The translations under genes and the position numbers were made by a program. From IMG/VR virus record IMGVR_UViG_3300018418_003100, positions 1 to 21,957 of that record: a stretch of 21,957 nucleotides of DNA; one strand, written 5' to 3'. The stretch is from a virus. Below the pieces are notes generated by a model. The model ran no database searches, was not told the origin of the DNA, and was given only the letters and a program-made list of their open reading frames with translations. This document shows positions 1 to 19,800 of this stretch, piece by piece (position 1 is the stretch's first letter; every line of letters begins with the position of its first letter).

Positions 1-1995
1 CCTTTAGGTTTCTTTAATAACGCTCAGTTTGGTGGTGGAACTCAAGAAGATACTTACGCATCAACAAATACGACTATATCTCATAATTTTGATGGAAGCA
101 CAGTTGATATTGTTATTGTAGAACCTAGTGCTGGTATTGTTGAACAGCCATCGTGGGCTCAAGCACATCCAGATTTCAAAGACTCATCTAATAATTTTAG
201 ATTTGTTGCTGTTGATTGGAGTGATTATGATTCAGGAGTAACTAACGTAAGAAATAATCAAGTCACAAATGGTTGGACAGACCTTGGTAAACACGCACTT
301 GCATCCGCATCAGTTGCAGCAGGTACTTATTGTGGTTGGGCAAAAAACGCAAACCTTTATTATGCTGATACGACTTATGATAGTTACCTTTCAATATATT
401 CCGCAATTTATGCATGGCACCAAGCAAAACCGGTCAACCCAGATACAGGAAAAAGAAACGCTACTATCGTAAACAATTCTTGGGGTTTTTATGCTGATAG
501 AAGAGCCGAAAATATTATACCTATCGAAGAAATTTCTTCTTTTAACGCATTTGATGATGATGGAAATCAAACAACAGTAACTAGACCAGGTGGTGGTTGG
601 GGAAGTGATTACTCAGATTTCGTAGACAACGGATTCAACGTTGTTAACACAACTGGTGCTAATGGAACTGATAAGTGGGGAATCGCAACTTTTCGTTCAA
701 ACACTTCTAGAGACGCAACATGGGATTTTATTTTAGATTACTTTAATTCTATTGAAGGTTGCTATCAATTCTTCTCAGCTGGTAATACTCCAGTTGTTTT
801 TGCAAGAACAGACCAGCCTCAGTATAATAATCAAATCTTTTTAGATGCAAATTATTTTTACTATGACTTAAACGAATTCAACAATAATAAAGTTACGGCA
901 ACCGAAAATACTTATGCACCTGTAACTGGTACAGAATATACTCATAGGTGTGAGTTCATCGGCCATCGATATTCATTTTATGTTTCAACATATCAATTCA
1001 GTACAACAAACCCAATGATAGAGTCTTATCCCGCAAGAGGTCCGGCGATTGATGCATTAGGACAAGGAAGAGGTTCATGGTGTGCTGCAAGTAGTTATAA
1101 TCTTAAAACTGACTCAAATGGATTTCAATGGGGAACATTTTCGGGAACTTCAGCTGGATGCCCAAATGTAGTTGGTGCAGTTGCATTAATGCTTGACCAT
1201 TATTATTATGGAGAAGGTGGAGCGTCTTGGCCAACGATTGCAGAATTAAGAACTATGATAAGAAGTACTTTCTCTCAACACCCTCTTCAATTAGTAGAAG
1301 ATTTAGGAAAAGACAGAGATGGTAATGCAGTAAGTAAAACCGCTTTTCCTGCTGCAGGTACAGAAATGTGGAACCACAGGTTACAAGGTTCTTATTTCCA
1401 AAACCAAACTATGACTCAGCGCACGACGATAACTGAAAGAGTACAAGACAGAAACACTTATAACGATAACTATGTTCTTACTGTAGGAAATAGTGGAAGC
1501 ACAAGTTATACTTTTACAGGAACTGCTGGGCCAAATACATTTAGTGCTAGTAATGACCCAATGATAGTTATAAGAAAAGGTGACACACTAACTTTTAACA
1601 TATCAACAAGTGGGCATCCTCTCTACATTAAACAATACGATGGTGAAATTGGTATTGTACAAGGAAGTACGGGCGGCTATAGTAATGGTGTAACAAATAA
1701 TGGCGCTTCATCAGGATTCATTGTTTGGAATACAAATACTGCAGACACTGGTATCTATTATTATATTTGTTCGAACCACGCTGCAATGGGTAATTATATT
1801 GTCGTATTAAGTGAAGATGAGGAATATTATCAAGGTACTGGAATCATGGGCACCACTCCGAATACAAGAGTTTGGTTACCTTGGTCAATAAGAAATGGAA
1901 CAGTAGGAAAAACAAAACAACCGAGAAGTATAACTTATACTTCTAGACCTTCAACAGGACAAACATATCCTAGAAGGAAAATCAGAGTAGCTTAG
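1..1995 (+). CDS. Subtilisin-fold (S8-like) virion protein with C-terminal cupredoxin-like domain, 5' end outside window
   Basis: The frame is open from base 1 to the TAG-free end at a TAG/TAA-type stop at 1993-1995, so 664 codons are visible and the true start lies upstream; the ATG at 1015 is internal. Codons are numbered from base 1. Subtilase landmarks appear in order: VDIVIVE (35-41, Asp strand), HPDF (56-59), LGKH (95-98, His helix), IVNNSWG (156-162), FFSAGN (oxyanion Asn262) and GTSAGCP (Ser384). The Asp position reads Glu41 and the first His of the usual HGTH reads Leu95, so proteolytic activity is doubtful. Residues about 505-605 look like a cupredoxin: His539, then Cys590, His593 and Met596 in YYICSNHAAMG. 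The tail is Arg/Lys-rich. It sits directly upstream of the gp8-like gene, which suggests a baseplate or tail location (inference). Confident of the fold, unsure of the role. Confidence 0.8.
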   Translation, partial: PLGFFNNAQFGGGTQEDTYASTNTTISHNFDGSTVDIVIVEPSAGIVEQPSWAQAHPDFKDSSNNFRFVAVDWSDYDSGVTNVRNNQVTNGWTDLGKHALASASVAAGTYCGWAKNANLYYADTTYDSYLSIYSAIYAWHQAKPVNPDTGKRNATIVNNSWGFYADRRAENIIPIEEISSFNAFDDDGNQTTVTRPGGGWGSDYSDFVDNGFNVVNTTGANGTDKWGIATFRSNTSRDATWDFILDYFNSIEGCYQFFSAGNTPVVFARTDQPQYNNQIFLDANYFYYDLNEFNNNKVTATENTYAPVTGTEYTHRCEFIGHRYSFYVSTYQFSTTNPMIESYPARGPAIDALGQGRGSWCAASSYNLKTDSNGFQWGTFSGTSAGCPNVVGAVALMLDHYYYGEGGASWPTIAELRTMIRSTFSQHPLQLVEDLGKDRDGNAVSKTAFPAAGTEMWNHRLQGSYFQNQTMTQRTTITERVQDRNTYNDNYVLTVGNSGSTSYTFTGTAGPNTFSASNDPMIVIRKGDTLTFNISTSGHPLYIKQYDGEIGIVQGSTGGYSNGVTNNGASSGFIVWNTNTADTGIYYYICSNHAAMGNYIVVLSEDEEYYQGTGIMGTTPNTRVWLPWSIRNGTVGKTKQPRSITYTSRPSTGQTYPRRKIRVA

Positions 1996-2047: not shown

Positions 2048-3925
2048 ATGCCAGAGATATTAAGTAATAGTTTCAAAACAGACATCACAAGATTGTTTAT
2101 TGACGATATTGCCAATAACAATTATTTCTTGTATGTGTCTGGTATTGATTCTTTTGACCCAGTAGATTCTCAGAAATCCAAAAACGAATTTTTGGAGCGT
2201 ACTCTATTCGGTAAAAAAATAGAAATCAATGACATTCATTTTATGATTAAATATTATCCTTGGCAGGTAGGTCAAGTATATGTTGAATATGATGACCAAG
2301 TCGATTTAACAGACCAAAGATTTTATGCGGTTGTTGGACCTAACGATAACGAAACTGGTGATTATCGTGTTTATAAGTGTTTAAATAATAATAGTGGTGC
2401 TGCAGTTACTTCACCTCCTAATTATAACCCAACAACTACAAACCAAGTTTATGAAACAGCAGACGGATATGTTTGGAAATTTATGTATGTTATTAGTGAC
2501 TTACAATTCGAAGCATATAACGCTTTAGGTTATGTTCCTATTATTGGAACATTCAATACGAATCCACCATACGGAGGTGGTTCAAGAGTTTCAGACATAG
2601 TAGTAGAAAATAATTTAGATAATTCTGGATATGTAAAAGAAAGTGGTGGTTTAATTTCTTCACCATTTACAAGCGGAACTATGTTAGTTGACCCATTTAC
2701 TACATGGAGTCCTATTACAAACTATTATGTCGGCCAAAACATTTACACACTTAATGCTAATGGTGTTGCAAACTTATTTACGATTAATTATTATAATTTT
2801 AATACAACTACAGGTAATGCAGAAATACGTGTAGGTAATGAATTAATTTATGGTAAGAAAACAATTAATGTTGAAGGAGTAACAACAACAAATCCAGTTG
2901 TTGTAACAGCAACTGCTCACGGATTAGTTGATGGAACACAAATAAGATTTAGCAATGTAGGTGGAACAACAGAATTAAATAGTGGTGTTACATATTACGC
3001 AGTAAAAATTAGTGATGACACATTCTCTTTGAAAGTTGATAGAAACTTAACTTCAAATTTAGATGGTAGTGCATTTACAGCATACACATCTGGTGGAACT
3101 TTTACCGCCGAAAGAGATGCAGTGGCAGCAGGGGTTGCAAGTAACGCATCATTCACAATATTCCCAAGAGTTAAAGTCACTGGGGACGGAAATGGTGCAG
3201 TCGCAATTCCAGAAATTGTAGACAATAGAATAAGTAGAGTTACAGTTTTAGAACAGGGTAGTGGTTATAGAAACGCTTTCTGTGAAGTTGTAGACCCTGC
3301 GTTTGACTTTGACCCAGAAGATACGACAACAACTGATGTTCGTGCAACGGTTAGACCAAGATTATCACCAGACAGTGGACATGGATATAATTTACTAGAT
3401 GAGTTTAGATGTAAACACTTTAGTTTTTATGCTTATATTTCTGCTGATGATAATACAAGAATTGGAGATACGAATACTTACTCAGGTGTAGGTATTGTTC
3501 GCTCACCTTCATTTGCAAGTTCTGTACCAACTGTTTTCGATAATAGAATTTCAGTCACGACAAATGATATAGATAGATTAACAGCGAATAGTACTGTTAC
3601 TCAAGTAAACTCAGATAATGAGATTACTTTTTCTGGGAAAGTACACGAAGTTGACGCATCTGCAAACACATTCTATATTGCGGAATATATGGGACCATAC
3701 CAAAACAACGCAGATACAGGACAAGGAGATACTTCACTAGATTTAACATTACCATTTAGGAATGAAGCTGGACAGACAATCACTATAAATAGTCCAGTAA
3801 TAGATAATGTAGTGACATCAGATTATACTCAAAGAACCGGAGAGGTTTATTTTATGGAAGACTTCTTCCCATTATCAAGAACAGAGCTCTCTAGAGAAGA
3901 ATTTAAGTTTGTCTTGGAATTTTAA
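2048..3925 (+). CDS. 8: T4 gp8-like baseplate wedge protein, enlarged
   Basis: Probable baseplate wedge subunit, the counterpart of T4 gp8, which joins gp6, gp7 and gp10 in the wedge. The match is by motif. RFYAVVGPND...YRVYKCL is followed by DGYVWKFMYVI (139-149), like YRCLD...DGYVWEYLFEI in T4 gp8. The C-terminus RTGEVYFMED...FKFVLEF resembles SGEMIYMEN...INILFTF of T4 gp8. At 625 residues it is almost twice T4 gp8 (334). Much of the excess lies between the conserved ends and includes a beta domain at about 275-354 with AHGLVDGTQIRF, the signature of the E1-FCCH-like domains common in marine phage tail proteins. The start is the ATG after a late promoter octamer; there is no clear Shine-Dalgarno, only GAG seven to ten bases upstream. 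It begins a four-gene run with short spacers. Confidence 0.85.
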   Translation: MPEILSNSFKTDITRLFIDDIANNNYFLYVSGIDSFDPVDSQKSKNEFLERTLFGKKIEINDIHFMIKYYPWQVGQVYVEYDDQVDLTDQRFYAVVGPNDNETGDYRVYKCLNNNSGAAVTSPPNYNPTTTNQVYETADGYVWKFMYVISDLQFEAYNALGYVPIIGTFNTNPPYGGGSRVSDIVVENNLDNSGYVKESGGLISSPFTSGTMLVDPFTTWSPITNYYVGQNIYTLNANGVANLFTINYYNFNTTTGNAEIRVGNELIYGKKTINVEGVTTTNPVVVTATAHGLVDGTQIRFSNVGGTTELNSGVTYYAVKISDDTFSLKVDRNLTSNLDGSAFTAYTSGGTFTAERDAVAAGVASNASFTIFPRVKVTGDGNGAVAIPEIVDNRISRVTVLEQGSGYRNAFCEVVDPAFDFDPEDTTTTDVRATVRPRLSPDSGHGYNLLDEFRCKHFSFYAYISADDNTRIGDTNTYSGVGIVRSPSFASSVPTVFDNRISVTTNDIDRLTANSTVTQVNSDNEITFSGKVHEVDASANTFYIAEYMGPYQNNADTGQGDTSLDLTLPFRNEAGQTITINSPVIDNVVTSDYTQRTGEVYFMEDFFPLSRTELSREEFKFVLEF

Positions 3926-3943: not shown

Positions 3944-6900
3944 ATGCCTATTAATACGAACCTAAACCAATCACCATATTTCGATGATTTCGATATCGAA
4001 AATCAATATTATCGTGTGCTCTTTAAGCCTGGGTTCGCTGTACAGGCAAGGGAATTAACGCAATTACAATCTATGCTCCAAAATCAGGTGGAGCAATTCG
4101 GAGATAATATCTTTAAAGAAGGTAGTATCGTAAAAGGTTGTTCATTTACAAACTTAGATGATTTAAGATTTGTTAAGCTTATCGATGTCGTAGGATTTGA
4201 CCCAACTAGTTATATTAGTAGAAGAGTTATTGAAAACTCAGTACAAACAGGTGGACAAGATTTAGAACTTGATTATATTTACGAAGTTACTGGTGCAAAC
4301 TCTGGGTTGAAAGCACAAATCATTTCAGCTGCAAGAGGTTTCGAAACAAGACCACCTGATTTAAATACTTTCTTTATTAACTATCTTGCACCTACTGACC
4401 CAGCAACTACAGATACAGAATTTAGAGCAGGTGAACCATTAACTGTTGTATTGAAGAAATACAAAGTCGGTGTCACCAATACAGTATTCGCAGAAGAGAC
4501 ACAATCAATTCCTGGTTTAGCAGTAACATCTCTTTCAAACCATGTTGGTAAATCATTCGGTATTCAATCTTCGCCGGGTGTTGTTTTCCAAAAAGGACAT
4601 TTCTTATTCGCTGCTGACCAAGTACTTGTTATTTCAAAATATAATAATTTACCTGATGGTGTTTCAGTAGGTTATTCTGTACAAGAAAAACAAGTTAACG
4701 CACTACAAGACAACGATTTATATGACAACGCAAATGGTTCATCTAACGAGAATGCACCAGGCGCAGACAGACTTCAATTAATTCCAACACTTACAGTATT
4801 ACCAACAACTGATGCAAATACTGACTCAGCGTTCTTTACACTTATTCGATATCAAAACGGAAACGCTATTACACTAAGAGACGTTTCTCAATATAACGTA
4901 TTAGGTGAAGAACTTGCAAGACGTACTTTTGAAGAGTCTGGTAACTATGTACTGAAACAATTCCCAGTTGCTACAGATGATAGAGATGGAGATGTTAATG
5001 TATTATTAGGAACAGGTACAGCATATGTTAAAGGATTTAGAGTTGAGAATTCTGGTGAAAGGTCGTTTGTAGTTGACCAAATCACACAAACAGAAGTTCA
5101 AAATAATAACTCAGTATCTTTTGATTATGGAAACTATGTAGATGTAACAGCATTCACTGGTACACTTGATATCGATTGGACTCCTGTAAATTTACAAGAT
5201 AGTGGTGGTAGTAATATCGGTACAGCAATTGCGATTAACGCATCACCAACAAGAGTTTATTTAACTGCAGTTACATTCACCGGTTCAAATAAAGCTGCTG
5301 ACTTAGCGAGAATCAGTGATGGTTCTGGATTCTTAGAAGTAGGAAATAGATTACACGAAACAGCAAGAAAATCTTTATTGTTCGACACAGGAATGAAGAG
5401 TTTATTCGCTACATCAGATACACTACTTCCTGTAAGAGAAAAAATTGCAGCAACACATAATGCGAATGTTATTACATTAACAGCAAATCCTGGTGAAGAC
5501 TTTGATGTTCAACAAGATGATATATTAGTTGTTGATGGTTCTAATACACAAATTCCAGTTACTGGTACATTAAAAACTTTAAACAATAGTCAACTTGACA
5601 TTTATTTAGATGCTTCTGCAAACTCAGCTACTAACGTCACACTCTATTATAATAAGAGATTAGTTGGTGCTGGTTCTAATGGTGTTGAACCATATAATAA
5701 GACAGTTGCAGAACCTTATATTAAAGTTAACTTTACAAGTGCAACAACACAATATAGTTTAGGTTTCCCAGATGTATTTGATATTACAGAAGTAAAAGAC
5801 GCTTCTGGTAATGATTTTACAAGTAGTTTCAAACTTGTTAATAACCAAAAAGATACTTACTACGATATTTCATACATGGAATATATTCAAGGAAGACCAG
5901 TTCCTGCAAATGGTGTATTAACCATTAAACTTAAGGTATTCCAATTAAGTACATCATCTGGAGAGTATTTCTTTACAATTAATAGTTATCCTAATTCATT
6001 AGATGCTTATGACATTCCAGTGTACGTATCTCAATCAGGCAACCGTTTTAATTTAAGAGAATGTTTTGACTTTAGACCTTATCTTAATAAAGACGCATCT
6101 GCAGACTATTCTGCAGTGACTGAAGGTGCGGCACCAACAATTACAACAGCGGTTGGAGCTCATTCACTTGATTGGAGCACTTATGGTCCTGCACTTATTC
6201 CTGCACGTTCAGCTAGTGCAACAACAGACATTGAATATTATTTAAGTAGAATCGATGTTATTGTCGCAGACTCTTATGGTGAAATTAGTTTAATTAAAGG
6301 TAAAGAAGAAAAATTACCAGCACCTCCTCGAGTTGAATCTGAAAAACTCGTTATTGCTGAAGTCACAGTTCCAGGATTCCCTGCATTAAGTTCAGCTGGT
6401 GCGAATACTGCGAAGAAGAGAGAATACGCAGTTAAAGCACGTTCAACAGGAATTAAAAACTATACCATGAAAGACCTTCACTCGTTAGAGAAGAAGATTG
6501 ATAACATGGCATATTATATTTCATTAAACCAATTAGAATCTGAAACTCAAAACTTATCAGTACTTGACGAAAATGGTTTAAACAGATTTAAAAATGGATT
6601 TATTGTTGACCCATTCAATGATTTATCTTTAGCAGATATTCAAAATCCAAACTTTATGGCAGCGGTTCCATTTAATCAAAAGATTTTAACACCTGCTGTT
6701 AAAACTTATGCACTCGATTTAACATACAAAACAAGTAGTAATGCTTCAATTTTCCCATCGACATCTGAAGCAAAGGCTGGAACATTATCTCGAAATCAGA
6801 ACGTTGATATTATTAGTCAACCTTATGCTTCTGGTTTCCGTAATGCAGTAAGTAACTTCTACAAATATCAAGGTGATGGAATTATTTCTCCACCTTATGA

Positions 6901-9325
6901 TGCTGCATACGATACAACAACAAATCCAGTTACTATTGACATTGATATGTCAACAGCTTTCGAAGAATTTGTCGATAACATTCAAGAGTTTTTACCACTT
7001 ACTGACACAACTCAAACAGTTGAATTGCAAGAAGATAGATGGGGTTGGGGAAGAAGGTTTGGTGGAAGAGGACGTGGTGCTACTGAAGTTACAACAATCA
7101 CAACAAGAACAAGTGAAATTAGTGTAAATCAGGGTTCAACTCAAGAACAATTCGTAGGAGACTTTGTATCTAACTTCTCTATGAAACCATATATGGCAGG
7201 TAGAGATATTAAAGTTTATATGTCTGGTTTACGTCCAAATATACAACACTACTTCTTCTTTGATGGTGTTGATGTAAATGCTCATGTAATTCCTGGTTCA
7301 CCTGACGATTCTGCTGGTAACATTAAGCGTAATGGTAATAAAGGTGATGCAGTAACAACTGACGAAAATGGTGTACTCAGAGCGGTATTCTCATTACCAC
7401 CTGAAACATTCTTTGTCGGTGATAGAGTATTAGAAATTGCTGATGTTAATTTATATAACAGTATTGAAAGTGGTTCTACATCAAGAGGTTTCGTAACTTA
7501 TAGAGCATATAACTTCGCAGTTGAGAAGACTGCTTTAACAACTTCAACACGACAACCTGATTTTGATATCAACACAACGACAACAACAAGAAACGTTGCA
7601 AGAAGACCAAGAGGTCGTGACCCAATCGCTCAAACATTCTTTATTAAGAAAGGTATGGGTCAAGGTTCAAACTCTGTTTACTTATCAGAAGTTGACGTAT
7701 TCTTCAAACGTGTAAGTACAACCAACGGTGTATCATTACAAGTAAGAGAAGTTGTAAATGGTTATCCATCTAATCAGATTGTTCCATTCTCAGTAGTACA
7801 TAAGATTCCAACAGAATTAACAAGTGCTTCATCTGACGATGCTTCAGTCGCAACTACATTTGCTTTCGAAGCACCTGTAAGATTAGATGTAGAAAAAGAA
7901 TATGCAATTGTAATTCAACCAGATGCATCTGACCCGAACTACTTAGTATACACTTCAAAAGTTGGTGGAACTGATTTAACACCAGGTGATACTCAAGGTG
8001 CTGCTATTGTACAAGACTGGGGTGATGGTGTTCTATTTAGTTCTACAAACAATAGTGCTTGGAAATCTTATCAAGACGAAGATATGAAGTTTACTTTACG
8101 TAGACACGACTTCAACCAAACAACAGGTAGTGTTACATTAACAAATAATGACCACGAATTCTTAACAGTTAATAACTTTAATGGAAGATTTAATTTAGGT
8201 GAAACAATTTACCAAGAGAAATCTTTACAAGGTTCAACTAGTGCGACAGTAAATGTACCTCTTAATTCTGCAACAATGACAGGTACAAACCTCGATGATA
8301 CTTACGCGGATAATGACTTTATTCTTATTTCGAATGCAGGTAATACTGAATCTGATATTTTCAAGGTTGTAAGTGTATTGAACTCAACAACAATTACACT
8401 CGATAAGCCAGCATCCTTCGCAGTATCTAATGGCACAGGAACACCAGTTGTTGTAGGAAGGTTATCTTATTACAATAAGAATAATCCTTACGAGATGCAC
8501 TTAGAAGAGTCCTCAGTAAGGTCTTCAAACATATTCTCTCCTGGATTGCCTATCGTAGGACTTGATAGTGGTAAAACTGCAGACATCGTAAGTATCGATA
8601 ATATTAACTTCAGTTATGTTCAACCTCTTATTAATAGAGCAGTTGATTCAACATCGAAAACTTTACTTGGTGGAACTTTTGTACCACCTACAAATGTAAA
8701 CACAACTTACACATTACCAATGGAATTCAATAATAATAATCACTTCAGTAAAGAAGGTGTGATTGTTTACAGTAAATCTAATGACCCAAATAGAAGTAAA
8801 GCTTTTGATTTAACTGTTGATTTCGATAATGGTAATAACACTACATCAACTCCTTTCTTAGATATTGAAACATCTAAGTTATTAGCATACACATACAAGA
8901 TTACAAATTCATCTGCGACAACTTCGAAATATATTTCTAAAATTATTGAACTTGCTCCAGATGCAGATGCTGAAGATTTACATTTAATAGTAACAGGATA
9001 TCGTCCAACGGGTTCTGATATTAAGTGTTATATTAAACCTCAAAATTCTTATGATAGTGATGTATTTGATTTAAATCCTTGGATTGAACTCGAACTCTTT
9101 GAAGGAAACGGAGTATTTTCAAGTAATTCAAATCTTAACGATTATAGAGAATTTAAGTTTAGAGTATCAGATGCAAACAAAGCAACCGGTGTATTAACAT
9201 ATGCAAACGCACTTGGAACTAATTTTGATGGTTTCAGAAGGTTCGCAATTAAGATTGAAATGTTATCACCTAATGTATATAACGCTCCAACGCTAAGAGA
9301 TTATCGTGGAATTGCACTAACGTAG
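3944..9325 (+). CDS. Very large DUF4815-type tail/baseplate structural protein
   Basis: A 1793-residue virion protein of the kind annotated DUF4815 in marine T4-like phages. The N-terminus (YFDDFDIENQYYRVLFKPGFAVQARELTQLQSMLQNQ split around residues 12-48) is the typical opening of that family. Residues 1033-1046 form a Gly/Arg/Trp patch (WGWGRRFGGRGRGA). It is followed by a beta domain with MSGLRPNIQHYFFFDGVDV, and then, from Asp1226, by a jelly-roll-like segment (DPIAQTFFI...VDVFF...GYPSNQIVPFS...YAIVI). The C-terminus ends RDYRGIALT, as family members do. AGGAAAG nine bases before the ATG supports the start; the gene lies 18 bases after the gp8-like stop. It is probably a baseplate-peripheral or fibre-anchoring protein, inferred from position and family. 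No enzymatic motif is visible. Confidence 0.85.
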   Translation: MPINTNLNQSPYFDDFDIENQYYRVLFKPGFAVQARELTQLQSMLQNQVEQFGDNIFKEGSIVKGCSFTNLDDLRFVKLIDVVGFDPTSYISRRVIENSVQTGGQDLELDYIYEVTGANSGLKAQIISAARGFETRPPDLNTFFINYLAPTDPATTDTEFRAGEPLTVVLKKYKVGVTNTVFAEETQSIPGLAVTSLSNHVGKSFGIQSSPGVVFQKGHFLFAADQVLVISKYNNLPDGVSVGYSVQEKQVNALQDNDLYDNANGSSNENAPGADRLQLIPTLTVLPTTDANTDSAFFTLIRYQNGNAITLRDVSQYNVLGEELARRTFEESGNYVLKQFPVATDDRDGDVNVLLGTGTAYVKGFRVENSGERSFVVDQITQTEVQNNNSVSFDYGNYVDVTAFTGTLDIDWTPVNLQDSGGSNIGTAIAINASPTRVYLTAVTFTGSNKAADLARISDGSGFLEVGNRLHETARKSLLFDTGMKSLFATSDTLLPVREKIAATHNANVITLTANPGEDFDVQQDDILVVDGSNTQIPVTGTLKTLNNSQLDIYLDASANSATNVTLYYNKRLVGAGSNGVEPYNKTVAEPYIKVNFTSATTQYSLGFPDVFDITEVKDASGNDFTSSFKLVNNQKDTYYDISYMEYIQGRPVPANGVLTIKLKVFQLSTSSGEYFFTINSYPNSLDAYDIPVYVSQSGNRFNLRECFDFRPYLNKDASADYSAVTEGAAPTITTAVGAHSLDWSTYGPALIPARSASATTDIEYYLSRIDVIVADSYGEISLIKGKEEKLPAPPRVESEKLVIAEVTVPGFPALSSAGANTAKKREYAVKARSTGIKNYTMKDLHSLEKKIDNMAYYISLNQLESETQNLSVLDENGLNRFKNGFIVDPFNDLSLADIQNPNFMAAVPFNQKILTPAVKTYALDLTYKTSSNASIFPSTSEAKAGTLSRNQNVDIISQPYASGFRNAVSNFYKYQGDGIISPPYDAAYDTTTNPVTIDIDMSTAFEEFVDNIQEFLPLTDTTQTVELQEDRWGWGRRFGGRGRGATEVTTITTRTSEISVNQGSTQEQFVGDFVSNFSMKPYMAGRDIKVYMSGLRPNIQHYFFFDGVDVNAHVIPGSPDDSAGNIKRNGNKGDAVTTDENGVLRAVFSLPPETFFVGDRVLEIADVNLYNSIESGSTSRGFVTYRAYNFAVEKTALTTSTRQPDFDINTTTTTRNVARRPRGRDPIAQTFFIKKGMGQGSNSVYLSEVDVFFKRVSTTNGVSLQVREVVNGYPSNQIVPFSVVHKIPTELTSASSDDASVATTFAFEAPVRLDVEKEYAIVIQPDASDPNYLVYTSKVGGTDLTPGDTQGAAIVQDWGDGVLFSSTNNSAWKSYQDEDMKFTLRRHDFNQTTGSVTLTNNDHEFLTVNNFNGRFNLGETIYQEKSLQGSTSATVNVPLNSATMTGTNLDDTYADNDFILISNAGNTESDIFKVVSVLNSTTITLDKPASFAVSNGTGTPVVVGRLSYYNKNNPYEMHLEESSVRSSNIFSPGLPIVGLDSGKTADIVSIDNINFSYVQPLINRAVDSTSKTLLGGTFVPPTNVNTTYTLPMEFNNNNHFSKEGVIVYSKSNDPNRSKAFDLTVDFDNGNNTTSTPFLDIETSKLLAYTYKITNSSATTSKYISKIIELAPDADAEDLHLIVTGYRPTGSDIKCYIKPQNSYDSDVFDLNPWIELELFEGNGVFSSNSNLNDYREFKFRVSDANKATGVLTYANALGTNFDGFRRFAIKIEMLSPNVYNAPTLRDYRGIALT

Positions 9326-9332
9326 GTGACTT

Positions 9333-9524
9333 ATGAGTGATATGAAAAGAGACAACATCGGCGCGGTAATAAACACAGACATCGAAGCTCTAAATAAATA
9401 TAAGGTAGAAAGAAGTTATTATCGTAAAGTAGATAAACTTCAAAACGATATTCTCGAGATTAAAAGAAGCATCATTACAATTTACGAAAAAATAGAGAAA
9501 TTGGAAACTAAAGACAATGGCTAA
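9333..9524 (+). CDS. Small coiled-coil protein (63 aa)
   Basis: A 63-residue charged protein of unknown function. Residues 33-57 form an uninterrupted heptad pattern (V33, L36, I40, I43, I47, I50, I54, L57 at a/d positions), so a short dimeric or trimeric coiled coil is expected. AGGTGA, overlapping the stop of the preceding giant, is four bases short of the ATG and supports translational coupling. Its last eight bases overlap the next gene. Wedged between two structural genes, it may be a minor baseplate component or an assembly chaperone for the fibre encoded next (inference). Small proteins beginning with a similar IGAVINTD segment occur in marine T4-like phages as I recall, but no function is known to me. 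Confidence 0.75.
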   Translation: MSDMKRDNIGAVINTDIEALNKYKVERSYYRKVDKLQNDILEIKRSIITIYEKIEKLETKDNG

Positions 9525-10827
9525 ACCAGCACTAAGTACAATTAATACATCACAGACTTTCCAAAACTGGTTTGATAAGACCAACGAGGTTGTTAATATC
9601 TTCAGAACTGATGCAATCACAGCTTCAGGAACTGGTGATACAACAACAGGTGATGCTACATTAATTGGTGATTTCACGTCAACCAATTTAATTGCAAGTA
9701 CTCTACTTCAATCTGATACAATTGCTTCACGTACGGGTGGCGCGACAATCAACTTTAATTCAGATATTAAAATCAATGGTGCTAGTCAAACAACAGCAGA
9801 ATTTAATTTTGGTTCAGGTGGACAAGTAAGATTTACAGACGGAAGTCTCGCATGGGATGTTGGATTAGAAAATTCAAATCCTGGCAACTTTATAATCGAT
9901 ACAGGTACAGCACCTACTAAGTTTCAATTATCAACTGCAGGTACTTTATCAGTTCCAAATATTATTGTTGGTGAAGACCTGACTGTTGCAGCTGATGCTG
10001 AAGTAACAGGAACATTAACTGTAGGAACACTCTCAATTGGTGGAGGTGGTGCAGGTTTAAGTACCGATGATGTTTCTGAAGGTTCAACAAACAAATATTA
10101 CACAGATGCTAGAGCAAGAGGTGCTTTCTCAGGTGGAGACGGAATCAACATCGCAAATGATGGAACAATTTCATTTGATGGAGATGGTGAACTTCAAACT
10201 TATACAGGTAATGAGTTTATTCCTACAGGTTCTAAAACCGGAAGTGGGAGTACATTCGCTAGAGCTTATATAGATGGTGCAAATAATGTCGGTGTTGGAT
10301 TTGGAAGATTAAGATGTGATTGGTCAGGTAATACTTACGATGTATTAACTTGGATGCCAGCAGGTATTGATGTAAATGGTTATGGTCGTTTTGAAGATGA
10401 CGTAAGAGTTACAGGTGGAGATGTTGTTGTAAGAAATAGCTCTAATGATATTGTTGCGTTTATGGACCAAAACGGCAATGGTCACTTTTCAGGTGACGTA
10501 ACAACATACGGTGCTACATCAGACGAAAGATTAAAAGAAAACATCGAGCCAATTGATAATGCTTTAGCAAAAGTTTTAGAGATTAACGGATACACATTTA
10601 ACTATAAAGACAATCCTGAGAAAAGATTACCTGGTGTGATTGCTCAGGAAATTGAAAAAGTTTTACCAGAAGTAGTATATAATGTTGATAATGTAAATGG
10701 TGATGAGGAAGAATATAAAGCGGTAAGATACGCACACGTTGTTCCATTGCTAATCGAGGCAATTAAAGAATTGACAGGAAAGGTAAATGATTTAGAAAAT
10801 CGCTTAGCGAACGGCGATAATTCGTAA
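9517..10827 (+). CDS. Tail fibre protein with C-terminal peptidase S74 intramolecular chaperone
   Basis: A 436-residue trimeric-fibre-type protein. The N-terminus (LSTINTSQTFQNWFDKTNEVV) is a conserved opening of marine T4-like structural proteins, probably the attachment end. The middle is Gly/Thr-rich beta sequence and includes LSTDDVSEGSTNKYYTDARAR, a common phage fibre motif. From residue 335 comes the S74 chaperone: SDERLKENI, GVIAQEIEKVLPEVV, then a terminal helix LIEAIKELTGKVNDLENRL. Ser335 and Lys340 match the Ser/Lys dyad of the endosialidase chaperone (S-x4-K). Self-cleavage is therefore predicted just before Ser335, leaving a 334-residue mature fibre and a 102-residue released domain. 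GGAAA nine bases before the ATG lies inside the preceding gene, which it overlaps by eight bases. Confidence 0.92.
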   Translation: MAKPALSTINTSQTFQNWFDKTNEVVNIFRTDAITASGTGDTTTGDATLIGDFTSTNLIASTLLQSDTIASRTGGATINFNSDIKINGASQTTAEFNFGSGGQVRFTDGSLAWDVGLENSNPGNFIIDTGTAPTKFQLSTAGTLSVPNIIVGEDLTVAADAEVTGTLTVGTLSIGGGGAGLSTDDVSEGSTNKYYTDARARGAFSGGDGINIANDGTISFDGDGELQTYTGNEFIPTGSKTGSGSTFARAYIDGANNVGVGFGRLRCDWSGNTYDVLTWMPAGIDVNGYGRFEDDVRVTGGDVVVRNSSNDIVAFMDQNGNGHFSGDVTTYGATSDERLKENIEPIDNALAKVLEINGYTFNYKDNPEKRLPGVIAQEIEKVLPEVVYNVDNVNGDEEEYKAVRYAHVVPLLIEAIKELTGKVNDLENRLANGDNS

Positions 10828-10866: not shown

Positions 10867-13800
10867 ATGTCAAAAATTTCAGAACTAGGTTCAATTACAG
10901 GTGCTAATACCAGGTCGGAAGACCTGTTTGTTATTGTCAACCTTGTTCAAGGTGACGATGGTACCAAGAATATTACTCGTAAAGAATTAGTCGAAGCTAT
11001 TCAATACGAGATTTTCTCAAGAATCACAATCACTGGAGGTACTATCTCCGGTGTTGTCATGTCAGACTCTAGACTTGATAATGTAATCATCGACAACTCA
11101 AACATTGAAGATACTGATTTTGTTCGTGGTTCTATTGATGATACAGCAATTACAGACAGTACTGCTAATAACATCACACAATCATATTCAACTTTCCAAT
11201 TAGGTACAATATTCGCAACTGTAGCGAATACAATGACAATTACCGATTCTGATTTCTCAGATGGTACTGCAAACAATGTCGTTATCACAAATTCTCAGTT
11301 CAATGAAGGTACTGGTAATAATGTAGTACTTACAAATTCAACCATTGATAATTCCACATTTATTAACGGTGATGTTAATAACTCTGTTATTGAAACATCC
11401 GAGTTTAATAATGGTACAATGGATACAGTTACTGGTGTTAATTTAGACATATCTAATTCAGATATTACAACATCAGATATCACAGATTCAACAGCTAACA
11501 ACTTAACGATTACAAGTTCTGAGTTTAACTCAGGAACAATGGACACTGTTACTGGTGTCGATATAACATTATCGAATTCTGAAATTAGTACAACTAATAT
11601 TCAAACTTCTAATTTCTATGAAGGCAATATTAGTAACACAGTTATCGTAACATCAGAATTCAATGATGGTACATCTAATAATGTTGTTATAACAAATTCA
11701 CAGTTTAATGATGGCACAGGAAATAATGTCACATTAACAAATTCAACCATTGACGATTCTTTAATTCAAGATAGCACCATCGCTAATACCTCATTTACAG
11801 GTACAATGAGTGATGTAACAGCAGTCAATATGACAATCACAAGTTCATCTGCTGATGGATTAGGTGCTAATAATTCTACATTCGAAAATGGTACAGTTTC
11901 TTCTTCAACATTCTCAGGTGGAGTCATTGACCAATCAAAACTTGTCGACTTTGACATGGAACTTACTAAAGAGTTCGAACCACCTATTGATGATGAAAGT
12001 TATTTCGCAATTCGAAATGAACAAACTGGTGAAACAGAACAAATTAACTTTGGTCAATTATTTGACGAAGTTTCTGCAAGAACAGCTCAAGCACTTAAAG
12101 TTCACGTTGACGCAGCTTCAGGAGACGATAAAAATCCGGGCACTCAATTAGCACCTGTTAGAACTCTTGAACGTGGTTGTGAACTTATGTTAGAAAAAGC
12201 GGGTGGTTCTTTTGACAGAAACGCATTGAACAACGCAGTTCATATGTCAGTTGGCCCAGGTGCTTATTATACAAAAGGTGAACTTGCAATTCCTGATGAC
12301 TGTTCAGTAACTTCTACTGCAGGTCAGTATGCTACGGTTATTGAAGCACTTCCAGGTTATGAAAATAATAACTGTTGGTTAGTAGGTTCAGGTAACTATG
12401 TTCAAGGTTTCGGTTATCAAAACTGGAAGATTGACAACTTCGATTTCCCAGAAGGTGGATTCGCTATTGCTTACAGACCTGGTGCTAAGTTACTCCGTTC
12501 ACCATACATCAGAGACAGTTCTCAATTATCTAACTTTAACAGGGTAGATGTTGAACCACCTCTAAACCCATATAACACCAAAGGTACACTTGACGACTTA
12601 GGTAGAGAATTTACATTAAGTAATGTTTCAAGTGTTTCTGGATTTGCGGTTGATGATGAGATTACATTCTCATCTGGTGCAGTTGGTTTCGTATCTTACG
12701 TTTCTGAACTTGCTTCTGATAATAAGATTCACGTAAGAAACTTAAAGAACAACAAAGGTTTTGCGGTTGGGGATACTATTACATCTGAATCTGGTGGTAC
12801 TGCTACAATCGACGTAATTGGTATCGACGACTTCCCTAACAGATTAGTTGGAAGAGGTGGTGGATGTCTACTTGCAGATAGAAGAGTATTAGACCCAGAT
12901 TCATTATATACTTACGTATTATGTTTCGGTTTCACACCTCGTTCTCAAAACGGTATGGGTTATGTTGCTAGGGATGGTGCTGGTGTAAACGGTATCGGTT
13001 CTCTATCCATCTTCGTACGATGCGCATTCTACGCATTGAACGGTGGACAAATGACATTGAACAACTCAGGTACTCAGTTCGGTGACATCTCAATGAGAGC
13101 TAAGGGTACAACTCAGTTCTTCGCACCTAAAGCAACCAATGCAACTATATTTGGTAACACAGTATTTGCTGACACTATTGAGAATGCTTATGACGATATC
13201 GTCGATGATATGGTTGACTATCTCACATCAAATACAGCGAACGGTGGATTAAATTACACAGGATACGATGCTGGTAAATGTGAAAGAGATACAAGAATTA
13301 TTGTTGATGGATTAGGTTATGACGTTGCATTAGATTCTAACTACTGGGGTAGATTAGCTGGTATTACATATCGTTCACCTATCTCACAAAAAGTTGTAGG
13401 TGACCAATTAGAACAAACAGTCGCAGCAAACGAATATTTACAAGACCAGATTGAAGGTATTTTCGAAGGCTCAACAAATATTATTAATAGAGCAAATACT
13501 TCAATGCAAGAACTCTTTAATGTTCTTCAATATGGTGAAGAAAACATGAACCCAATTACATGGGTTGACGACATTTATAATCCTGAAAGAACAGCAGCTA
13601 GAGAGTTAATACAAGACAATAGGTCATTTATTCAAGATGAATTAACAGATTGGATTGATAATAATGATGAGTTCTTCTCTTATGATAGTGTAGCATGTAG
13701 AAGAGATACAACTGATTATATTCTTCCAGCTGTTAAGTATGATATGTTATTGGGAACAAACTATAATGCAGTAACTGCGGGTAATGCTTATTACATGAAT

Positions 13801-16800
13801 GCAGCTGCTAAAGTAGTTGATAAACAACGTAATGAAACAATTGCAGCATATCGTCATCTTAAAGATAAAACAAACGAACTCATCGATGCAAATACAGAAA
13901 TTGGTCACGTAAGAGCTGATGAAGCATTTGACGAAATCATCGGTCAATTAGAAGGTAATGGAATTAAGTTATTACCTGAACCTGCTTCTTATACACCTAC
14001 AGATGCTTCTTATGACCACGTAAGTGGTTTAATGGAAGTTACCATAGGTGACCATGCATTTAAAGTTGGAGATGGTATCTTTATTAAAGAGAATGGAATG
14101 ACATTCTCATGTCCAGAAGATGGAACAGGAAATCCAATCAATATTTCACATCCACGTCCAAGTGACCCATTGTGGAATCAGAAATTTGATATTGTATCGA
14201 TAACACAAACAACTATAACGGTTGATGCAAAACCGGCAGGTGTCAATAAAGTACATACATTCGTAAGTGCATATAAGGACGCAATCCAAGCAGCTACTAC
14301 ATACACATGGACACCGACAGGCGGAACATATGATGCAGCAACTGGTTATATGACGTTAACTCTTGGAAGTAAGCATGGTCTATCCAAAGGTGATAGAGTA
14401 TTCTTCAAACCAGAGAGTATAACATTCTCATGTGAAGGTGATGGTACAGTTACACAATTATCACACCCAAGACCACATGACCCAACATACAAAACACCAG
14501 TAGAGATTGACTCTGTCACATCTAATTCGATTACAGTGTTAGTTGGTCCTTCAGCTTATGTTGCACCACATACATTCGTATCAGCTGATGTTAACTCAGT
14601 TATTTTAGCGAATTCTAAGATTTACTTCTCTGATGATACATCAATCACAGCAAGTAAGCGTAATGCTAGAATTCAATTACAAGAAAACAAAGAATTTATT
14701 CAAGACTTAATGCTTGGTTATATTGATTATAACTACTTTAGATATGATTCAGAAAAATGTGAGAGAGATGTTCTTAAACACATCTTACCTGCAGTTGAAA
14801 GAGATATTATTACAGGTTCAAACTATAATGCTAAACAAGCAGGTATAGCATACAGGTCTAAAACTTCTGCAGAAGATACTTGGTTAAATGAAAGACCAGA
14901 AACCGTTGGTTCAATGACAGAGTTGAAGCAATTAGTTGCTAACAACACAATCACAGACCTTGGAAGTATTCATAGGTCAAATGAATCATTCAGACAATTA
15001 ATTGATATTACAAACAGTAATGGTAAATCATATACACCTGCAGCAGGAACAACTTATGACCCAACATCTGGTAAATTAGTATTATCAATTGGTGCTCATG
15101 ATTTCGAACCTGGTCAAAACATCGTACTTGACGATGAGAGTGTTACATTTACATGTGCATTAGACGGTAATGCAACACAACATTCTTACCCAAGAAAAGG
15201 TGACCCTGCTTACAGAACACCAGTATTAATTAACAAAGTAACATCAACAACGATTGAAGTAAATGTTGGTGGATACGAAAATGGTACAGCACATACATTT
15301 GTATCAGCAACTGCTAACAGTGTTAAAGCATCTGATTACATTTCATCTTTCACACCTTCAACTGCTACATACGACCCAGCAACTGGAGTATTTGAAGCAA
15401 CAATAGGTAATCACTCATTTGAAGTAGGTGATTATGTTGAGTTGAAACCTGAAAGTATCGTATTTACATGTGCACAAGATTCAAATACAGTTGAGCATGC
15501 TTATCCAGCAACTCACCACCCTGCATATAAAACTCCAGTTAAATTAACAGGAGTAACTGCGACAACAATCACAATGAATGTTGGTGTAGGTTCTGGTGGT
15601 GCTCATACATTCGTTAGAGCTGACGTTGGTGCTATCGAGGGTGACCCAATTATTTGGACTGACCCATCTAAGTACTTAAAATATTATACACCAACAACTG
15701 CAACATACAACCCAGGAACTGGTGAAAGTGTAGTTACAATTCCAGGCCACGACTTATTAGTTGATGACTTTATCGAATTCGCACCTTACAGTTTCACATT
15801 TACATGTTCTCAAGATGGAGATGCTACTGAACATTCATATCCAAGAAAAGGAGATGGTAACTTCAATACACCAATGCAAATTACTGCAGTGAATGGTGAT
15901 GATATTACTGTCGATGTTGGAGCAGGTTCAGGTGGTACACATACATTTGTAAGAGTTTCAAACGAAGCGGTTGCTAAGGTTACAACAAATTCAGACGGAT
16001 TCTATGCCGCTCAACAATTACAAGCTAACCGTAATATGATTCAAGATGAAGTAATGGCTTATCTTGATAATAATTACTTTGTATTCGATGGTGCTAAATG
16101 TTCAAGAGATACAGGATTTATTTTAGATGCTGTAAGACGTGACGTTGCAACAGGTGCAAACTATAATGCGGTATTCAATGGATTAGGATACAGAATCGGT
16201 ACTGTCGGTGCTAACAAAGTTATTAATGACCAATTACCACAAACAACTGGTTCAATCAATTATCTTAAATCAGAAATTGCAGCTGAACTTTCTGGTAACT
16301 CATTAGCAAGAGCAAACGCAGCATTTGACGAAATTATAGACATTATCACTAACGGTTCTGCAAATGCAAACACACTAGCATTTGGTGCTAATGGTGTAAG
16401 TGCTCAAACAATCGAAGCAAGGAATGCATTACAAAATAACAGAGCATTTATCCAAGCTGAAATTACAGCTTATATTGCTCAAGAATTCCCTAACTTAAAT
16501 TACGATGTTGCTGATTGTGAAAGAGATACAGGTTATCTAGTTGATGCATTATCTTGGGATATTCAACACGGTTCTAACTCGGCTTCTATCAACTTTGCAA
16601 GATTATACTTTGAAAATGCGATTGCAGTTCTACCTGGTGACCAAAAGATACCAACAGCGAAAGCATGGCAACATATTGCTGATGTAGCATATCAAGTTGT
16701 AAGAGACCAAGCAGTCACACCTACATCTGGAAACGGTGCTTCTCAAGACCAATCATTAACTGATGTTGGAATCGCCATTGCAAATGATGTTAAAGACTTA

Positions 16801-19800
16801 GTGAATATCGTTACAGATACAATAAGAAACGAATCACTTGATTGGTTACCTGAATATATTGAACCAACAATTGAAGCAACTTATGAAGATGCTGTTAATA
16901 AGATTGATGGTCAAACAGAACCTCTTTCAATCGATGTTATCGGATATGTACAAAGAGAATGGAAAGGTTTACCATACGAAAAAGCTAAGTGTAGAAGAGA
17001 CGTTGGTCTTATTGTTGATGCTGCTTCTAAAGACATTATCTATGGTGGTAATGCAAATGTTATCGAAGCTGCTAAATACTACTTTAGACTTGACGATGAA
17101 CAATCAGCAGATTACGAACAATTAAGAAGTGTTAACGTATTACCTCTCGAAGTACTTGGTCAGTTTAAAGATACTGCCGAAGAATACAAGACAGCAAACG
17201 TTTCAGGTTTACGTACACTAACAAACATATTACCTATTGAACAACGCATTCCAACAATGGAAGCATTTAGACATTTAGCAGATGTTGCAAGTAATGTAGT
17301 ACAAGAAATTGCGATTACACCTTCAGCAAACAATGTACCTTCACAAGATACTTCAGGTACTCCGGCTGATGCAGCAACTGGTACAGCAATTCACGACCTG
17401 ATTGAAATTGTTGCTAATGTAGTTGATGATGATTCAGATGAGAACTTAACAACTACACTAGTGAGTCCAACAGTTGATTCAAACAGAACAGCAGCACGTG
17501 TTCAAATACAAAGAAACAAAGACTTTATTGCTGAAGACGTCATTGCTAAGTTGAAGAAAGATTACTACACATTCGATGGAGATAAGTGTAAGCGTGATGT
17601 TGGAATTCTTATTGATGCGGTTAAACGTGATGTACTTACAAACTCTAACTTTAACGCAGTGTTCAATGGATTAGCATATAGAATTGGAACAACTGGTGCT
17701 GATGCGGTTATTACAGAACAACTTTCAGAAACAATTAAAGCAATTGAATACACAAGAGACATTGCAGTTAACAACGTAACATCTAGCGTTGGAAAACAAA
17801 GAGCAATGACAGCATTTAATGAAATCCTTGACATCATGAAGAATGGTTCTACTAATGCTGATGCAATCACTTATGGTAGTGTTTCTCAAGCGGGTAATAA
17901 CGGTATTAATGCAAGAGAACAATTACTTAATAACAAAGCATTCTTACAAGCTGAAATCACAGCTTGGATTGCACAGAATTATGGTTCACTAGTTTATGAT
18001 TCAGCTAAGTGTGAAAGAGATTTAGGATACTTAATTGATGCTGTTATCTTTGATGCAATGCATGGTGGTAATAGTGCTTCAATTAATGATACAAAACTTT
18101 ACTTCGAAAATGCAATCAGTGTTTTACCAGAAGACCAGAGAGCACCTACAGCGGCAGCCTTTAATCATATAGGTACTGTTGCAAGAAGTGTTGTACTCGA
18201 CACCGCAGTTACTCCAACAACAGGAAACGCGGAATCACAGAACTTCTCAGCTGGGTCAGTAGGTACACCACTTGCAGATAAGATTGAAGGTCTATTTGGA
18301 TTGGTTGCAACAGCAATTTCTGATAACGGATTAGAAGTTAACCCAGATGTTGAAGAACCAAATACAACATTCTACACTGATGAACTCGCATCTTACGTAG
18401 AATTAGACGCAAGTAAAGAAGCAATTCAAGACGGAATCCTTGCTTATCTTGCAAGATACTTTGACATTCTTCCATACAGCGAAGCAAAATGTAGAAGAGA
18501 TGTTGGATATATCCTTGACGGAGTATCACATGACATTCAATACGGTGGTAATGCAGCTACATTAAATAACGCATATCTCTACTTTGATAATGCAGTAAAT
18601 ACCTTGCCTAAAGAACAAAGAGCTGCAAGTAAAGAAGCATTTACTCATGTCGCTAATGTTGTAGAACATGTTGTTAGAAGAATGGAAGTAGACCAATCAC
18701 GTTGGATTAAACAAACATTCGGAGTTCAAACAGCAACTTATGACCCAGTAACTGGAATCATGGTTGTAACAACAAAAGCTCCACACGGATTAACAACAGA
18801 CGATTACGTCATCGTTGAAGATGAGGGTATAACATTTAGTTGTGGTGGTAGTGTTGAAATATCACATCCAAGACCAGATATTGACCCAAATCATAGACAA
18901 CCTTTAAGAATTACCGCGGTAACTAACCAGACATTTACAGTAAATGCTGGATATGCCAAAGGATACGCTGGTGCTCATACATTTGTAAGTGCTTTACCTA
19001 ACGCTATTCTCCACATTGAAAACCAAATCTACAAGCAAGATATGTCACAAATTGCTGGTGACCCAGAGATTGCAATTAGAGCTAAAAACCTAGTCAATAT
19101 TATTTCTAATGTAGTCGATAAGGGTTCTTATGTAGACTTCCCGAATAGAGTAGACCCACTACAAACATGGCAGGCACAACCTTTCATTGATTCGAAAGAA
19201 TTAATCGAAGATGCAAGTACTGGTTTAGCAACTTCTGTTCTGAATTACATTTCAAATGTTCATAATGGATTGAGTTTCCCAGAAGCTAAGTGTAGAAGAG
19301 ATATTGGATACTTACTAGACGCTATCTCTCATGATGTTCAGTATGATGGAAACATCGCTACACTAACAGCAACTAAGATTTATTTTGAAAATGGTATCAG
19401 CGTATTACCTGCAGACACAAGAACTCAAACTGCAGACATATACAATTACTTAGGAACAGTTCTTGATGCGGTCGTACAAGAAGATAACAGTGTTGCTAAT
19501 ACAACATACACATCGACAACTCAAGATTTACTTGGAACACCTGCAACAGCGATTGAAGGTGGAAGGGTTAGTGACTTAATAGGAATCGTTGAAGACGCAA
19601 TACGTGCTGACAACTTAGATTCATTACCACTTCCTGTTGAACCTACAATTGCATGGGTTGACACAGGTATTCAAGGTGCAGCTCAACAGATTGAAGATAA
19701 TACTGAATCACTTGCTGATGAATTAATCTACTACATTAGACAAGAGTTTGATGTACTTGATTATAACAGAGCTAAGTGTAGAAGAGATATTGGATACTTA

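What the first reader, a model, noticed from the sequence alone, without database searches (positions are those of the whole stretch)
1513..1815. Cupredoxin-like domain with amicyanin ligand spacing fused to a phage structural protease fold
After the subtilase core comes a beta domain with GHPLYIK (His539) and C590-x2-H593-x2-M596. Amicyanin binds copper through His53, Cys92, His95 and Met98, exactly C-x2-H-x2-M. A type-1 copper site in a virion protein could give stability, redox sensing or host-surface electron-protein mimicry; that part is speculation. Related blue-copper-like motifs are, as I recall, common in marine phage structural proteins, but the role is undescribed to my knowledge.
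Basis: partly seen in the sequence, partly recalled or inferred. Interest (0 to 1): 0.5.

Follow-up and report, generated by a model that had tools for sequence, protein, structure and literature searches.

The report
Cupredoxin domain in phage tail proteins
A virus of bacteria, related to phages of ocean cyanobacteria, carries on a likely tail protein a small domain of the blue copper protein family with its four copper-holding residues in place, and hundreds of related phages carry the same domain, so their particles may bind copper.

Summary
H539, C590, H593 and M596 lie in a ~115-residue domain (1465-1809) behind a subtilase-like region. AlphaFold (pLDDT 82.9) gives a cupredoxin; the best PDB fold matches are copper nitrite reductases, rusticyanin and small laccases. 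Aligned with phage plastocyanin, all four residues fall on the copper ligands. Of 107 non-redundant relatives 96 keep all four; the other 11 lost the Cys and second His together, and the six ligand pairs are the most strongly co-lost of 171 conserved column pairs. The four therefore form one functional unit, most likely a type-1-like copper site. The loop is amicyanin-length, but the first His is followed by Pro (as in the laccase HPF motif) and the His-to-Cys distance differs. About 350 phage records, mostly cyanophages, hold the domain, most often on gp9, the long-tail-fibre socket. The window's phage has a second copy on the gp9-like gene just upstream; Bacteroidota proteins have it too. 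Seven paper searches found no description. Best reading: a copper-stabilised surface module of baseplates and tail fibres. Fold and ligand set are computed; copper and role are inferred. Electron transfer and host mimicry have no support here.

The parts
1..1995 (+). Subtilase-like tail protein, 3' part (664 of 809 aa; the gene begins before the window)
   Evidence: ORF; Pfam Peptidase_S8 37.4 bits; PHROG 15006 'tail fiber' E=1e-42 and PHROG 9158 (unknown function); whole gene in L003:2102-4528. Virion location is inferred, no proteomics seen
1465..1809 (+). Cupredoxin domain, residues 489-603
   Evidence: AlphaFold model of 1465-1833 pLDDT 82.9, pTM 0.78; Foldseek and VIA matches are cupredoxins; profile vs PDB sequences
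1615..1617 (+). His539, predicted copper ligand 1 (His-Pro)
   Evidence: 98 of 107 non-redundant copies have His in this column; aligned with the PPHN His of phage plastocyanin
1768..1770 (+). Cys590, predicted copper ligand 2, the only Cys of the domain
   Evidence: 96 of 107; aligned with plastocyanin and azurin-like Cys; Cys list
1777..1779 (+). His593, predicted copper ligand 3
   Evidence: 96 of 107, lost exactly when Cys590 is lost
1786..1788 (+). Met596, predicted axial ligand
   Evidence: 100 of 107; loop length C-x2-H-x2-M in 95 of 96 HCHM copies
121..123 (+). Glu41 at the subtilase Asp position
   Evidence: Asp in 43 of the 48 related ORFs (of 59) that align here, Glu in 5; that this is the subtilisin Asp32 column is recalled
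292..294 (+). His98, subtilase catalytic His position
1150..1152 (+). Ser384 (GTSAG), subtilase catalytic Ser position
2048..3925 (+). Next gene: baseplate wedge subunit, supports the tail or baseplate setting
   Evidence: PHROG 438 E=1.1e-40

Best explanation
The stretch is a cupredoxin domain with a complete 2His-Cys-Met (type-1-like) mononuclear copper site, appended to a subtilase-like tail protein. It belongs to a family of exchangeable surface modules found on gp9 (the long-tail-fibre socket of the baseplate), proximal tail fibres, collagen-like fibres and subtilase-like tail proteins of mostly marine T4-like phages. Shown by computation: the fold, the ligand set, its joint conservation, and the protein contexts. 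Inferred: the site binds one copper ion, which ties the loop before one strand (His539) to the loop between the last two strands (Cys590-His593-Met596), as in other cupredoxins. It thereby stiffens an outward-facing beta sandwich at the fibre-baseplate region. There is no obvious signal peptide (by eye), so copper would be taken up after lysis in seawater or at the host surface rather than in the cytoplasm. My estimates: cupredoxin fold 0.97; metal site 0.85; copper as the metal 0.75; structural role rather than redox or receptor role 0.45. The confidence below is for the statement as a whole with a copper site.
For: Window domain model pLDDT 82.9, pTM 0.78; block holding C, H and M (101-110) mean 91, block holding the first His 82. 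Top Foldseek PDB hits are copper nitrite reductase 2dv6 (8.7e-7) and rusticyanin; 117 matches at E<=0.001, 50 listed. VIA Z 11.2, rmsd 3.4, 99 aligned (2dv6) and Z 10.1, rmsd 2.4, 98 aligned (2cal, rusticyanin). gp9-type copy of the same phage: pLDDT 89.5, C-H-M block mean 94, first-His block 77; Foldseek hits include rusticyanin and amicyanin. Family profile vs PDB sequences: 48 of 55 hits are cupredoxins by name. NCBIfam rusticyanin 1.6e-7, plastocyanin 8.8e-5, amicyanin 3.3e-4 as best values among 31 members. The P-SSM2 tail-fibre protein, which has two copies, passes Pfam Copper-bind's whole-protein cut-off (23.3 > 21.2 bits, though no single stretch passes on its own at the E limit of 0.01). 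Ligands in register with phage plastocyanin (H, C, H, M) and with azurin-like proteins (C, H, M). 96 of 107 non-redundant copies are HCHM; C590 and H593 are lost together in 11 of 11, and the first His is never lost while they stay. Ligand pairs rank 1-6 of 171 conserved column pairs for co-loss, Jaccard 0.56-1.0 against at most 0.36 for the others. Four changes by parsimony on a tree built without the ligand columns, two of them resting on short fragments. In the gp9-centred set the four ligands are 4 of 10 invariant columns of 29 sequences at 46% mean column identity. Second copy on the gp9-like gene directly upstream (PHROG 677).
Against: No metal has been seen. Ligand distances could not be measured (no coordinates given). 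The window domain itself is below Pfam's Copper-bind cut-off (15.0 against 21.2 bits, E 0.034), and a PF00127 search of the whole window record lists nothing at E<=1; in the longer contig it lists only the gp9-type copy, below cut-off. The profile-profile match to plastocyanin is weak (probability 29%). The residue after the first His is Pro in 104 of 107, so the backbone NH that hydrogen-bonds the Cys in classical blue copper proteins (recalled) is absent. About a tenth of relatives live without the site, so the fold does not need it. Some loci were found by sequence patterns that include ligands, so 96 of 107 and the invariant columns are biased upward (the co-loss pattern less so).
Confidence: 0.6

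Rival explanations
1. Metal site, but not copper (for example zinc), or a cupredoxin scaffold kept mainly as an adhesive beta sandwich with the site loaded rarely.
For: Virion proteins fold in the cytoplasm, where copper is scarce (recalled). Most relatives without ligands keep the fold motif YSNGVTNNG. His-Pro replaces the usual His-Asn.
Against: One Cys, two His and one Met in type-1 order with loop length kept in 95 of 96 is the copper, not the usual zinc, ligand set (recalled). A structural-only sandwich does not explain all-or-none loss.
Confidence: 0.2
2. Copper Trojan horse or receptor role: the copper-loaded tail domain is recognised by a host surface copper-uptake or copper protein, or mimics one, and helps adsorption.
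For: Domain sits on gp9, tail fibres and tail proteins. A parallel idea exists for iron in tail fibres (PMC11705849, passages). Bacteroidota proteins share the domain.
Against: In T4, gp9 is the fibre socket, not the receptor tip (PMC3004832, passages). No receptor data.
Confidence: 0.12
3. Electron transfer or redox sensor: the site cycles Cu(I)/Cu(II) to sense oxygen or the host surface, or to switch the neighbouring protease.
For: Ligand set of redox cupredoxins.
Against: No redox partner recognised in the window: the matches found are structural or of unknown function. The domain sits mostly on fibre and baseplate proteins. The protease triad is altered.
Confidence: 0.08
4. Chance motif in an unrelated beta domain.
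For: Individual Pfam score is weak and I-set scores nearly the same (15.0 and 13.3 bits).
Against: Fold searches, joint conservation, register with true cupredoxins.
Confidence: 0.01

Closest known systems
Amicyanin
   Same: C-x2-H-x2-M ligand loop; 2His-Cys-Met set; Foldseek match of the gp9-type copy (3ply, 3.1e-5)
   Different: First His to Cys is 39 residues in amicyanin, 51 here; His-Pro instead of His-Asn; part of a phage tail protein
Rusticyanin and copper nitrite reductase domains (2dv6, 6tfd)
   Same: Best fold matches (Z 10-11); best NCBIfam value in the family is rusticyanin (1.6e-7)
   Different: The virion loop is shorter than rusticyanin's (its ligand spacing is recalled); no redox enzyme attached
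Type-1 site of multicopper oxidases (HPFHLHGH motif)
   Same: First ligand is followed by Pro-Phe (His-Pro-Phe consensus); HPFHLHGH listed as a laccase copper motif (PMC10057929, passages)
   Different: No type-2 or type-3 histidines; single domain; Met axial ligand with a short loop. That the first His of that motif is the T1 ligand is recalled
Plastocyanin (petE) carried by cyanophages
   Same: Same fold family and ligand order; records G301, G302 and G303 hold both a plastocyanin and a virion copy
   Different: petE is a separate small protein with C-x2-H-x4-M; the virion domain is fused to tail proteins
T4 gp9 (PHROG 677)
   Same: The domain is the C-terminal ~105 aa of cyanophage gp9 (393 aa in L040)
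   Different: The window copy sits on a subtilase-like protein, not gp9; its phage has a gp9-like protein as well
HxH iron sites of T4-type tail fibres
   Same: Metal in a phage tail (PMC11705849, passages)
   Different: His-x-His motifs in fibres, not a folded cupredoxin

Membership tests
Cupredoxin fold | Predicted fold matches solved cupredoxins over most of the domain | tested here: met
   VIA Z 11.2 over 99 residues, rmsd 3.4, and Z 10.2 with rmsd 2.1-2.2 to small laccases; Foldseek; second copy
Cupredoxin fold | Pfam Copper-bind PF00127 above its curated cut-off for this domain | tested here: not met
   15.0 bits against 21.2; a relative in P-SSM2 reaches 23.3 as a whole protein
Type-1 (blue) copper site | His ... 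Cys-x2-His-x(2-4)-Met in cupredoxin register | tested here: met
   Positions; register with plastocyanin; conservation
Type-1 (blue) copper site | Four side chains converge within copper-bonding distance | not testable with these tools
Type-1 (blue) copper site | Bound copper with strong Cys-to-Cu(II) band | not testable with these tools
   Needs protein
Type-1 (blue) copper site | Residue after first His donates a backbone NH bond to Cys (usually Asn; recalled) | tested here: not met
   Pro in 104 of 107, as in multicopper oxidases with HPF
Amicyanin | C-x2-H-x2-M loop | tested here: met
   amicyanin ligands from PMC12723479 passages
Amicyanin | First His to Cys spacing of 39 | tested here: not met
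   51 here
Amicyanin | NCBIfam amicyanin model hit by the window domain | tested here: not met
   The only NCBIfam family listed for the window domain at E<=0.1 is halocyanin, 14.1 bits against a cut-off of 93.8
Peptidase S8 (subtilase) | Pfam score above cut-off | tested here: met
   37.4 against 21.8 bits
Peptidase S8 (subtilase) | Asp/His/Ser catalytic triad | tested here: not met
   Glu41, His98, Ser384
T4 gp9 (PHROG 677) | gp9 N-terminal part in the same protein | tested here: not met
   Only the C-terminal PHROG 677 stretch 302/303-409 matches the window protein and its full-length form; the gp9-like gene is the upstream neighbour

The most novel reading that the evidence does not exclude
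Most T4-like marine phages carry a ring of copper sites around the baseplate (if gp9 copy number is as in T4, 18 per particle) plus further copies on tail proteins. These are loaded with copper only outside the cell, and the loaded state is needed for fibre attachment or host entry, making copper a regulator of marine phage infectivity.
Probability: 0.15. Interest if true: 0.88.

Novelty: new variant of a known kind. Interest (0 to 1): 0.62.

Why it matters
The cupredoxin fold is known mainly from electron-transfer proteins and copper enzymes. Finding a jointly conserved copper ligand set on the tail-fibre socket and other tail proteins of hundreds of phages suggests a metal cofactor in virions that the annotations listed ('baseplate wedge tail fiber connector', 'hypothetical protein') do not mention. 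It is directly testable by metal analysis of cyanophage particles already in culture. By my rough estimate it would not matter for ocean copper budgets: even 1e9 such particles per litre with 18 sites each is about 3e-14 M, far below nanomolar seawater copper (recalled); its interest is in phage structure and infection.

Tried and rejected
Rejected: chance motif; intradomain disulphide as a general explanation (81 of 96 HCHM copies have a single Cys, 15 have two); exact amicyanin (spacing and His-Pro differ). A solved phage homologue was sought by sequence and fold and none appeared among the rows listed (the fold lists show 50 rows each). Papers: of ten searches, seven aimed at cupredoxin or copper domains in phage proteins and gave nothing on one in phage virion proteins. 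I saw titles and abstract starts only, and three lists were capped (30 of 43, 30 of 236, 20 of 229). The library lacks most subscription journals, so absence there is weak. Searches were for iron in tails and for laccase motifs. (PMC8115048, passages) was about viral nirK, a different thing. One search was meant to document the Pro after the T1 His in CueO and listed nothing on it. hhalign against azurin-like proteins covered only the last 34 columns, so the first His was not tested there. Pfam At5g54830 (PF25489) matches 11 of 31 family members, best 2.9e-5, but not the window domain. The second AlphaFold job went to the gp9-type copy, so the whole subtilase protein was not modelled. In one search, 255 copies were found, 28 without residues at all four ligand columns were dropped, leaving 227, then 107 after thinning at 80% identity; further dropped 5 short ones (102 left, 93 of them HCHM).

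Full report
Observation. CSNHAAM is the only CxxHxxM in the six frames of the window, with 0.005 expected in its proteins. The window begins inside the gene. A longer contig of practically the same phage (L003, IMGVR_UViG_3300023105_000011, 107,852 bases; 5,833 shared bases with 2 mismatches) gives the whole protein, 809 aa: an N-terminal part, a subtilase-like region (Pfam Peptidase_S8, residues 200-569), then the domain.

Fold. The 123-aa stretch 1465-1833, modelled with 22 relatives, gives an all-beta domain (pLDDT 82.9, pTM 0.78; below 50 at residues 61-70, mean 64 at 71-80). His51 of the model comes just before strand 53-57, Cys102 ends strand 96-102, and His105 and Met108 lie in the loop before strand 109-115. 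That is the cupredoxin arrangement (recalled). Foldseek's best PDB matches are copper nitrite reductases, rusticyanin and small laccases, 117 matches at E<=0.001, 50 of them listed. VIA gives Z 11.2 (rmsd 3.4, 99 aligned) for 2dv6 and 10.1 (rmsd 2.4, 98 aligned) for rusticyanin 2cal.

Sequence relationship. Alone, the domain scores below Pfam's Copper-bind cut-off (15.0 against 21.2 bits), finds copper nitrite reductase at 0.0048 in PDB sequences, and is not listed by a PF00127 search of the window record at E<=1. A profile of 31 relatives finds 55 PDB sequences at E<=10, 48 of them cupredoxins by name: nitrite reductases, laccases, rusticyanin, plastocyanin, auracyanin, amicyanin, pseudoazurin and others; the other 7 are unrelated. 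Over the 31 members, the best NCBIfam values are rusticyanin 1.6e-7, plastocyanin 8.8e-5, halocyanin 1.8e-4, amicyanin 3.3e-4. P-SSM2's tail-fibre protein passes the Copper-bind cut-off as a whole protein (23.3 bits). Profile-profile alignment with plastocyanins that cyanophages themselves carry puts His on His, Cys on Cys, His on His and Met on Met (probability only 29%). With Bacteroidota azurin-like proteins the last three ligands coincide (probability 89%, 34 columns).

The site as a unit. From 209 loci I collected 255 copies; 227 have residues in all four columns, 107 after thinning at 80% identity. Of these, 96 are His-Cys-His-Met. The other 11 have lost Cys590 and His593 together in every case, and His539 in 9 of 11; no copy lost His539 while keeping Cys and His593. 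A tree built without the ligand columns needs four changes by parsimony, two of them resting on short fragments. Among 171 pairs of conserved columns (102 copies) the six ligand pairs are the six with the strongest co-loss (Jaccard 0.56-1.0; the best other pair 0.36; median of other pairs 0.10). The sharing of ancestry is the same for all columns, so relatedness alone does not explain this. The sample leans towards intact sites because some loci were found with patterns that include ligands. In 18 loci from named phages, found by tblastn and picked by me for variety, 20 of 21 copies keep all four; the exception (RN05-S) lost His, Cys and His at once (read by eye). C-x2-H-x2-M length is kept in 95 of 96, and 81 of 96 have only one Cys, so a disulphide within the domain is not the general explanation.

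Not quite amicyanin. The loop length is amicyanin's (ligands in PMC12723479, passages), but His539 to Cys590 is 51 residues against 39, and the residue after the first His is Pro in 104 of 107, giving the consensus GHPF. His-Pro-Phe also begins the HPFHLHGH copper motif of laccases (PMC10057929, passages). From memory, that His is their type-1 ligand. The site looks like a mixture of a multicopper-oxidase-type first ligand and an amicyanin-length loop.

Where else it occurs. tblastn with a gp9-type member matches 353 of 50,697 phage records, chiefly Synechococcus and Prochlorococcus phages; with another member 350; with the window domain 219 (E<=0.01). [quoted passage not shown] Others are a proximal tail fibre (S-SCSM1), a peptidase S8 (S-BM3), gp7 (P-HM1), and a podovirus hypothetical protein next to a tail fibre gene (P-GSP1). 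In ACG-2014d gp9 (393 aa) the domain is the last ~105 residues. In T4 gp9 is a trimer, 18 copies per tail, and the long fibres attach to its C-terminal domain (PMC3004832, passages). The window's phage has a gp9-like gene (561 aa; PHROG 677 6.4e-45; T4_gp9_10_N 2e-4 but below its cut-off) whose stop codon ends 3 bases before the subtilase gene, with its own copy of the domain. That copy models still better (pLDDT 89.5; block of the C-H-M loop 94, block of the first His 77) and matches rusticyanin and amicyanin. Some phages carry both a soluble plastocyanin and virion cupredoxin domains: records G301 and G302, whose lengths equal those of S-CAM4 and ACG-2014e, and G303. The window phage's own host is unclear: its 1,793-aa neighbour protein is nearest to Sinorhizobium phages at 33%.

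Cellular relatives. 14 of 296 genomes of the phylum sample around a Bacteroidetes genome have the domain. The 18 cellular copies listed (read by eye) all keep Cys-x2-His and a Met, 15 with x2 and 3 with a longer gap. In L217 and L220 the same protein carries CHRD domains, and in L209 it sits at the end of a collagen-like protein (by eye) beside ordinary chromosomal genes. So the module occurs both in bacterial proteins and in phage tails.

How it likely works. I think the domain is a copper-stabilised surface module: copper ties two ligand loops and rigidifies an exposed beta sandwich near the fibre attachment. The fold, ligand set and joint conservation are shown; copper and role are inferred. 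The full-length protein has no evident signal peptide (by eye), so copper would be acquired after release (inference). Electron transfer has no partner in sight; a copper-receptor role is open but unsupported. The protease part is doubtful as an enzyme: the catalytic Asp column holds Glu41, with His98 and Ser384 present.

Novelty and score. A cupredoxin domain is a known kind; its place on phage baseplate and tail proteins with a jointly conserved copper ligand set is, as far as seven targeted paper searches in a partial library show, undescribed. I call it a new variant of a known kind and score it 0.62.

Noticed in passing
121-123, 292-294, 1150-1152: Subtilase triad reads Glu41/His98/Ser384 instead of Asp/His/Ser; among 59 related ORFs (window copies included) 28 have Asp and His (no Ser aligned), 10 have Asn and 5 have Glu at the His column, so several relatives look inactive.
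   Followed up: partly
10867-21033: A 3,388-aa protein with many repeats of a C-x-RD-x(n)-D motif (e.g. CRRDVGYILDGVSHDIQYGGN, by eye) and inserted THTFVSA segments; PHROG 5342, 701 and 4527 match in pieces.
   Followed up: no
9517-10827: Fibre protein ending in a Peptidase_S74 chaperone domain.
   Followed up: no
2048-3925: Baseplate wedge protein with an E1_FCCH-like stretch at residues 286-354.
   Followed up: no
3944-9325: 1,793-aa DUF4815 protein whose nearest named relatives are Sinorhizobium phages (33%) and, weaker, a Pelagibacter phage, so the host need not be a cyanobacterium.
   Followed up: partly
L003:413-2095: gp9-like gene of the same phage with a second cupredoxin copy, stop codon 3 bases before the subtilase gene.
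   Followed up: yes
L217, L220, L222-L231: Bacteroidota proteins with the same or a close cupredoxin domain; L217 and L220 were scanned with Pfam and carry CHRD domains; Pfam PF25489 (At5g54830-like) matches 11 of 31 family members and L220 below its cut-off.
   Followed up: partly
L032, L033, L034, L029, L031, L024, L066: Copies that lost the copper ligands but kept the YSNGVTNN-type motif (YNKGVINN in L066): natural ligandless controls, several in ORFs of about 1,600 aa.
   Followed up: partly
model m410948170bdb vs BFVD: Weaker fold matches to 'beta-sandwich' proteins of Pithovirus and Marseillevirus records and a Fadolivirus blue copper protein.
   Followed up: no
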